A stretch of DNA of 64,000 nt from Clostridia bacterium (GTDB lineage Bacteria; Bacillota; Clostridia; Christensenellales; Borkfalkiaceae): positions 1-64,000 of the forward strand of contig JAIDSX010000128.1 of the NCBI GenBank assembly GCA_029060985.1, read 5' to 3'. The notes below the pieces were generated by a model. It was given only the letters and a program-made list of their open reading frames with translations. It had not been told where the DNA came from and searched no databases. The position numbers were made by a program, and so were the translations under genes. Shown here piece after piece: positions 3,621-32,470 of the stretch; the stretch's first letter is position 1, and every line of letters begins with the position of its first letter.

Positions 3621-3818
3621 AAGTTCACCTTAAATATACTTTCTCTTATAATAATTATAATGCCATAATTTTCCAATTAAACAAATAGAAAATAAAATAA
3701 CAAAACATATAAACAATATTAAAACTGCGCTTTTAATTTAGGTAAATAGGTAGTTTTATTGCTCGATGCGTGTAAAAGAAATAAATAATAAAGTTAAAAA
3801 ATAGTAAAGACATTTAGT

Positions 3819-31855: not shown

Positions 31856-31879
31856 TCGTCGAAACGCGACGAATTTCGT

Positions 31880-31909
31880 AACACCCCGACAGAAATCTGT
31901 CGGGGTGTT
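31880..31909 (+). terminator. Terminator-like hairpin after tRNA cluster
   Basis: AACACCCCGACAGaaatCTGTCGGGGTGTT, then GCTTT. Confidence 0.65.
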
Positions 31910-31989
31910 GCTTTAACGTCGGTTTCTCCTCTTCCCCCAAAAATACTGCGTCTTTTTTGGGGAGATGCTGTTGTATTGTCGAATTAAGT

Positions 31990-32112
31990 ATGAAGCCCCG
32001 CCGACAAAAGTCGGCGGGGCTTCGCTTTATAAACAATAAAGAAGCGATGCCCCCGTGCATGGGAACCCAACTCCGATATGCACATCTCGGTCGGGTCAAA
32101 AACATCGCTTCC
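31990..32112 (-). ncRNA. Candidate structured small RNA (unassigned family)
   Basis: 9-bp closing stem (32041-32049/32103-32111), internal stem-loops, possible pseudoknot, distal GC hairpin 31992-32023, consensus promoter on the minus strand. Confidence 0.5.
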
Positions 32113-32118
32113 ACTTAT

Positions 32119-32146
32119 ATTATACAGCAAAATAAGAAAATGTCAA
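32119..32146 (-). promoter_or_regulatory. Promoter of candidate small RNA
   Basis: Minus strand TTGACA (32146-32141)-16 nt-TATAAT (32124-32119). Confidence 0.7.
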
Positions 32147-32189
32147 CCTTAAAGCAATGTTGTCGATTTTATTTTTTTGTGAAAACCGT

Positions 32190-32218
32190 TTGACAACAAC
32201 TTAAAAACGAATTATAAT
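32190..32218 (+). promoter_or_regulatory. Promoter for T-box-pheST
   Basis: TTGACA (32190-32195)-17 nt-TATAAT (32213-32218). Confidence 0.75.
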
Positions 32219-32224
32219 AAAACA

Positions 32225-32470
32225 AAAGGCAATGATGCGGAAGAGACGGATAGATATGTTTCTTTTCAGAGAGGAGAGCCCGCGGCTGAAAGACTCTTCA
32301 AAGAACAAAATCCGGTATTCCCCCGCGAGCCGCCCGCCGAAAAGAACTTTAAGCGGAGCCGTATCTCTTACGTGACAGAGGAAACGAGGCGCATTTTATG
32401 ATGCGCGAAAACAGGTGGTACCGCGGAAATTTTCGCCCTGTGCATTTTGCATAGGGCTTTATTTTATAGT
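32225..32470 (+). promoter_or_regulatory. T-box leader, probably tRNA-Phe responsive
   Basis: Conserved AGGTGGTACCGCGG followed by terminator CCCTGTGCATTTTGCATAGGGCTTTATTTTA, immediately upstream of pheS. Confidence 0.9.

What the first reader, a model, noticed from the sequence alone, without database searches (positions are those of the whole stretch)
31985..32146. Candidate structured small RNA with its own consensus promoter and pseudoknot
Seen on the minus strand: TTGACA-16-TATAAT, then a transcript from ~32112 reading GGAAGCGAUGUUUUUGACCCGACCGAGAUGUGCAUAUCGGAGUUGGGUUCCCAUGCACGGGGGCAUCGCUUC. It has a 9-bp closing stem, an internal GACCCGAC/GUUGGGUUC stem and a CCGA/UCGG hairpin. The loop of that hairpin (GUGCAU) is exactly complementary to downstream AUGCAC, giving a potential pseudoknot. 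A 14-bp GC hairpin (31992-32023) lies just 3'. No ORF explains it, and it is not a tRNA, T-box, tmRNA or SRP motif that I recognise. Inference: a conserved regulatory RNA between a tRNA cluster and the divergent pheST T-box.
Basis: partly seen in the sequence, partly recalled or inferred. Interest (0 to 1): 0.7.

Follow-up and report, generated by a model that had tools for sequence, protein, structure and literature searches.

The report
Orphan RNA antidote from phage toxins
A gut Clostridia chromosome carries a small, tightly folded RNA that elsewhere sits tail to tail with a toxin-like gene of bacterial viruses, and the RNA is exchanged together with that protein's active half, so it most likely is the antidote to the toxin, kept here without the toxin.

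Summary
At 32112-32034 (-) there is a roughly 79-nt RNA gene with a perfect sigma-70 promoter and a closing stem that runs into a U-run. No Rfam family matches. Ten distinct homologues fold alike. 16 of 29 pairs change on both sides, including 4 of the 6 loop-loop pairs (GUGCAU/AUGCAC); no shuffle scores as high. The loops sit on two hairpins of a three-way junction (a kissing pair).

The interpretation changes. It is not a conserved regulatory RNA: only 5 of 103 congeners have it. In the nearest sibling the tRNA-Cys/pheS locus lacks it; the window carries a ~280-bp insert. In phages and one genome contig it lies tail to tail with a head-region toxin-like gene with an LPD3 C-terminal domain. 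In a related phage the same locus carries a PBECR1 (predicted RNase) domain and a different RNA. DNA homology stops after the toxin N-terminus and resumes at the RNA's +1, with the promoter kept. A third allele has a third RNA.

Best reading: these RNAs are cognate antitoxin (immunity) RNAs of phage polymorphic toxins, and the window copy is an orphan. RNA-protein inhibition is inferred, not shown. LPD3 is not proven to be an RNase.

The parts
32119..32146 (-). sigma-70 promoter TTGACA-16-TATAAT
   Evidence: 12/12 consensus; all ten homologues have >=10/12 at the same place
32034..32112 (-). the RNA (about 79 nt including the U-run)
   Evidence: CM hits to 10 loci at E<1e-20; covariation
32103..32111 (-). 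P1 5' strand (GAAGCGAUG), pairs with 32041-32049
   Evidence: 7 of 9 pairs with changes on both sides
32041..32049 (-). P1 3' strand (CAUCGCUUC), followed by U-run 32034-32040: likely intrinsic terminator
32090..32097 (-). P2 5' strand, pairs with 32064-32071
   Evidence: six inner pairs well kept, the two outer ones weak
32087..32089 (-). invariant internal-loop strand CGA (opposite GGA at 32072-32074)
   Evidence: invariant in all ten homologues
32084..32086 (-). P3 5' strand GAU, pairs with AUC 32075-32077
   Evidence: GAU/AUC, GGC/GCC, GGU/ACC, GAC/GUC, GCG/CGC across homologues
32078..32083 (-). P3 loop GUGCAU (kissing partner 1)
   Evidence: 4 of 6 loop-loop pairs with compensatory change, 90% of cells paired
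32055..32060 (-). P4 loop AUGCAC (kissing partner 2), closed by CCC 32061-32063 / GGG 32052-32054
   Evidence: P4 closing pair CG to UA in one homologue
31992..32023 (.). 14-bp GC hairpin 3' of the RNA, possible two-way terminator of the insert
   Evidence: exact inverted repeat; no U-run follows it on the RNA strand
31856..32158 (.). region that carries the insert between the tRNA-Cys 3' end and the retained 3' half of the tRNA terminator
   Evidence: alignment with sibling G063, which has about 26-50 bp here

Best explanation
The RNA is an antitoxin (immunity) RNA of a phage polymorphic-toxin system, present here as an orphan. In the parent phages a late-region protein has a short N-terminus (MFNEEEHPRDNNGKFTD...) and an exchangeable C-terminal domain: LPD3 for this RNA, PBECR1 (a predicted RNase) for other RNAs. 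Tail to tail with it, from its own sigma-70 promoter, the phage makes a three-way-junction RNA whose two hairpin loops pair. In a lysogen the late genes are silent and the RNA is made, so the lysogen should be protected against toxin carried in by new virions or leaking from induction. I infer that the folded RNA binds and blocks its cognate toxin domain, because a new toxin domain comes with a new RNA while the promoter is kept. The copy in the window came in with an insert at the 3' end of tRNA-Cys and was kept without a toxin. Shown: RNA structure, promoter conservation, linkage to the toxin-like gene, joint exchange, orphan insert. Inferred: transcription, toxicity, packaging, direct RNA-protein inhibition, benefit to the present host.
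For: Covariation over ten homologues including the loop-loop pairs. Convergent LPD3 gene (PF18798 at 4.6e-11, 6.2e-9, 1.9e-12) in phi-L101/L060, phi-L114/L115 and L223; LPD3 3' remnants TLYDIKPISQQ* in L210 and LDPFNK in L046. Natural exchange: phage L228 (= phi-L101) and L229 share capsid protein (89%), toxin N-terminus (79%) and next gene (72%); DNA homology stops at L228:3107 and resumes at 3632, the RNA +1 being 3635. L229 has PBECR1 (2.3e-13) and an unrelated RNA behind a near-identical promoter. That second RNA has a homologue in L377: 6 compensatory changes, no broken pair among 24. Third allele in G081 (L380): PBECR1 at 9.5e-14, third RNA, 32 of 34 promoter bases as in L218. A protein with a similar N-terminus but a Zeta_toxin domain (L373) has no antisense promoter of 9/12 or better at its 3' end. 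Orphans keep promoter and structure although LPD3 was not found in the genus genomes that carry them.
Against: No transcript, toxicity or binding data. LPD3 was not linked to a BECR fold: profile comparison probability 0.4%, AF2 pLDDT 60, no significant Foldseek match. Joint exchange could partly reflect physical linkage. Few independent lineages: 3 LPD3 modules plus 2 remnants, 3 PBECR1 modules, some with broken frames (L115, L377). L210 has lost the 6-bp loop pairing. LPD3 domains inside giant polyvalent proteins have no such RNA.
Confidence: 0.66

Rival explanations
1. Antisense (type I-like) antitoxin: the convergent RNA pairs with the 3' untranslated part of the toxin mRNA and silences it; the structure only speeds kissing contact.
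For: Convergent genes overlapping at 3' ends, as in Bacillus type I modules (own knowledge); kissing loops help antisense pairing; RNA and toxin stop overlap by a few bases.
Against: Antisense action needs no new RNA when only the toxin domain changes; orphans keep the folded structure while loop sequences differ between loci; toxins are soluble proteins of ~180 aa, not small hydrophobic peptides.
Confidence: 0.13
2. Ring-forming structural RNA like phi29 pRNA: the complementary loops pair between molecules and the multimer serves phage assembly or packaging.
For: Three-way junction with two complementary, covarying loops, which is the pRNA design (PMC12670572); gene in the head region; whether the kissing is within or between molecules is not settled.
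Against: Transcribed against the late operon from a sigma-70 promoter; exchanged together with a toxin domain rather than with motor genes; promoter-intact copies in chromosomes without phage; no Rfam match to Phage_pRNA.
Confidence: 0.08
3. Trans-acting phage or prophage regulatory RNA (superinfection control, host mRNA target) whose place next to the toxin gene is incidental.
For: Own promoter, prophage association, one copy next to an integrase in L218.
Against: Next to LPD3 in three intact and two decayed contexts; unrelated RNAs take the same position beside PBECR1; no exposed conserved seed, since the loops vary and pair with each other.
Confidence: 0.1

Closest known systems
Type III toxin-antitoxin systems (ToxIN, CptIN, TenpIN; review PMC5086642)
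   Same: A folded small RNA with pseudoknot-type pairing neutralises a protein; the toxin is an RNase (predicted here for PBECR1).
   Different: Here: single copy rather than tandem repeats, own promoter, convergent with and 3' of the toxin rather than upstream in one operon, toxin of LPD3 or PBECR1 type, encoded among phage head genes, RNA type changes with the toxin domain, orphan RNAs in chromosomes.
MuF and other phage polymorphic toxins (PMC5576092); polyvalent-protein domains LPD3 and PBECR1 (PMC5512222)
   Same: Phage head-region proteins with constant N-terminus and exchangeable C-terminal toxin domain, with an adjacent immunity element.
   Different: Described or proposed immunity elements are small proteins encoded downstream; here the adjacent element is a structured RNA on the other strand.
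phi29 packaging RNA (Rfam Phage_pRNA; PMC12670572)
   Same: Three-way junction with two complementary covarying loops in a phage RNA.
   Different: No Rfam match; 6-nt loops fully paired; linked to a toxin-like gene; orphan chromosomal copies.
GOLLD and ROOL RNAs (PMC12286853)
   Same: Phage- or prophage-borne RNAs of unknown function, often near tRNA genes, with covarying kissing loops.
   Different: Hundreds of nucleotides long and cage-forming; this one is about 80 nt and linked to a toxin-like gene.

Membership tests
Any Rfam 15 family | bit score at or above the gathering cut-off | tested here: not met
   window, phi-L101, L034; RNA types 2 and 3
Type III toxin-antitoxin | tandem array of RNA repeats upstream of the toxin, separated by a terminator, one promoter | tested here: not met
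   single RNA, convergent, own promoter; definition from PMC5086642
Type III toxin-antitoxin | RNA binds toxin protein and blocks its active site | not testable with these tools
   inferred from joint exchange only
Type III toxin-antitoxin | toxin is an endoribonuclease of the ToxN kind | tested here: inconclusive
   PBECR1 is a predicted RNase family; LPD3 of unknown function; no PDB relative by sequence; Foldseek not significant
Phage polymorphic toxin | constant N-terminus with exchangeable C-terminal toxin domains in a phage structural region | tested here: met
   MFNEEEHPRDN[ND]GKFTDK with LPD3 or PBECR1, and a similar HPRDNDGKFTD start with Zeta_toxin
Phage polymorphic toxin | adjacent cognate immunity element exchanged with the toxin domain | tested here: met
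   an element is exchanged with the domain, and it is an RNA; homology breaks at toxin N-terminus and RNA +1; that it confers immunity is not tested
Type I toxin-antitoxin | antisense RNA pairing with the mRNA of a small hydrophobic toxin | tested here: inconclusive
   convergent 3' overlap fits; toxin is a soluble ~180-aa protein; pairing not testable
Phage pRNA | match to the Phage_pRNA model, linked packaging motor genes | tested here: not met
   no RF00044 match at E<=10; exchange unit is a toxin domain

The most novel reading that the evidence does not exclude
Phage polymorphic toxins can use RNA instead of protein as immunity element: a set of unrelated small RNAs of one architecture (three-way junction, kissing loops, P1 as terminator), each specific for one virion RNase-type domain. 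Bacteria such as the window's host keep orphan copies as a ready-made defence against phages that inject the toxin.
Probability: 0.5. Interest if true: 0.88.

Novelty: new variant of a known kind. Interest (0 to 1): 0.8.

Why it matters
Immunity to phage polymorphic toxins has been sought as small downstream proteins. A structured RNA on the other strand would be overlooked by every ORF-based survey, and could explain phage toxins that seem to lack an immunity gene. It gives a testable function to a new RNA class and to LPD3, a domain of unknown function, and a possible example of bacteria keeping a phage's own RNA antidote as anti-phage defence. The natural domain-plus-RNA exchange makes specificity directly testable.

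Tried and rejected
Known Rfam RNA: rejected. Coding peptide: ATG not conserved, U-run indels break the frame. Vertically conserved genus sRNA: 5 of 103 genomes. Close copy in sequenced phages or plasmids: none. Sub-threshold CM hits in the order and class (E 0.01-1): those inspected lack the core. 15-nt BLAST matches GATGTTTTTGACCCG in many congeners: nearly all inside one protein-coding gene, not homologues. RNA near LPD3 domains of giant polyvalent proteins: none. LPD3 as BECR fold by profile comparison, AF2 and Foldseek: not shown. Type-2 RNA orphans in the genus: none found, but without a positive control. A first pair count on the type-2 RNA used a mis-registered structure; redone. K-turn assignment of the CGA/GGA loop considered by hand and not supported by the pair register.

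Full report
1. The observation. The 72-nt core folds better than every one of 200 shuffles (z -3.2). The closing stem runs straight into a U-run, so P1 can serve as terminator. The 14-bp hairpin at 31992-32023 is exact. Rfam 15 gives no match at gathering score in the window except tRNAs, and no credible sub-threshold match to this RNA in the window or in homologues. The pheS T-box is present at 32223-32443 (+), slightly below its cut-off.

2. Homologues and covariation. BLAST in relatives gave one clear copy. A two-sequence covariance model found three more copies in the genus and one in another family. Pattern scans with a model of six sequences found two phage lineages in IMG/VR and more genome contigs. 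Over ten distinct sequences, 93% of cells pair and 16 of 29 pairs have changes on both sides (shuffled mean 8.9, 0 of 500); sliding the partner by 1-3 columns leaves 34-49% paired. The loop-loop helix alone: 4 of 6 pairs with compensatory change, 11 such cells against 3.6 expected. Examples are GUGCAU/AUGCAC, GUGCCC/GGGCAC, GCGUCC/GGACGC and GUGCCU/AGGCAC. One homologue (L210) has lost most of this pairing. The structure is a three-way junction: P1; P2 - invariant CGA/GGA internal loop - P3; short P4. The 6-nt loops of P3 and P4 are complementary. All ten copies have a promoter of at least 10/12 at the same distance.

3. It is mobile. Only 5 of 103 genomes of the genus carry it. The nearest sibling (G063) has the same tRNA-Val-Gly-Cys / T-box-pheS locus without it. 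The window has about 280 extra bases that start at the 3' end of tRNA-Cys and rejoin inside the tRNA terminator. In L218 the RNA lies in an element with a tyrosine recombinase (PF00589 and related) next to tRNA-Leu. In G014 and G115 it lies convergent to tRNA-Gly.

4. What it lies next to in phages. In both phage lineages (L101/L060 and L114/L115), and in genome contig L223, the RNA is tail to tail with a protein whose C-terminal domain is LPD3 (PF18798). In L210 and L046 only the 3' end of that gene is left, still convergent with the RNA. In the L101 phage the genes around it are capsid and head genes (Phage_min_cap2), so the toxin-like protein is a late-region product. Its N-terminus (HPRDNNGKFTD) resembles that of phage proteins that carry other effector domains: Zeta_toxin in L373, and large multidomain proteins.

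5. The key test: exchange. Phage L229 is a close relative of L228 (phi-L101): capsid protein 89%, toxin N-terminus 79%, next gene 72% identical. Its toxin C-terminus is PBECR1 (2.3e-13), a predicted phage RNase family (PMC5512222), and its RNA is unrelated. DNA homology ends at L228:3107 inside the toxin gene and resumes at 3632; the RNA starts at 3635. The unit exchanged is therefore the toxin domain plus the whole RNA, with the promoter kept. The second RNA has a homologue beside a 75%-identical PBECR1 domain in L377, with 6 compensatory changes and no broken pair among 24, again a three-way junction with loops that can pair (ACGC/GUGU and ACGC/GCGU). A third PBECR1 allele in genome G081 (L380) has a third RNA behind nearly the same promoter, with loops CCGC/GCGG. 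About 3% of 160-nt windows of these loci contain a promoter of 10/12 or better, true ones included, so finding one in the convergent position at every one of these modules is not chance. The Zeta_toxin protein L373 has none.

6. Mechanism. Shown: structure, promoter, linkage, joint exchange, orphan insert. Inferred: the RNA is made in the lysogen while late genes are off, and binds and blocks the cognate toxin domain. Joint exchange argues for specificity to the protein domain. An antisense RNA to the mRNA tail would not need to change with the toxin domain, although exchange by linkage cannot be excluded. Orphans with intact promoter and structure, in carriers where a search of relatives found no LPD3, argue for action in trans, for example against incoming phages. 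Whether the loops pair within one RNA or between RNAs is open; with pairing between molecules the RNA would resemble phi29 pRNA (PMC12670572).

7. Comparison and novelty. It works like a type III antitoxin but fails the defining genetic layout (tandem repeats upstream of the toxin; PMC5086642). The protein side fits phage polymorphic toxins (PMC5576092), where immunity has been sought as small proteins. Eight literature searches in the held open-access library found no RNA immunity for such toxins; this covers only part of the literature. I rate it a new variant of a known kind, with a fair chance that it is a new class.

8. Limits. LPD3 could not be tied to an RNase fold. No expression data. 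Few independent modules, several in metagenomic contigs, two with broken frames.

Noticed in passing
window 32223-32443 (+): T-box leader before pheS scores 85.1 bits, just below Rfam's cut-off of 93, so a default annotation would miss it.
   Followed up: no
window 32190-32218 (+): Second perfect TTGACA-17-TATAAT promoter, divergent from the RNA promoter, presumably for the pheS T-box leader.
   Followed up: no
window 31874-31974: Two further hairpins (14-bp AACACCCCGACAGA repeat, and CCCCAAAAA...TTTTTGGGG) in the insert, perhaps replacement terminators for the tRNA operon whose own terminator was split.
   Followed up: partly
L002 1177-1677: BrnT/BrnA-like toxin-antitoxin genes directly 3' of the RNA in G014, absent at the same place in G115 (L031).
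   Followed up: no
L218 6450-8000: The element with integrase and orphan RNA also carries an AAA_15-type ATPase gene and an unknown 272-aa gene, like a defence island.
   Followed up: no
L373 2501-3496: Phage protein with a similar HPRDNDGKFTD N-terminus and a Zeta_toxin kinase domain, followed by a small ORF that may be a protein immunity gene.
   Followed up: partly
L380 1850-1950: Third RNA type followed by a separate GC hairpin with U-run, as the window RNA is followed by its own GC hairpin.
   Followed up: no
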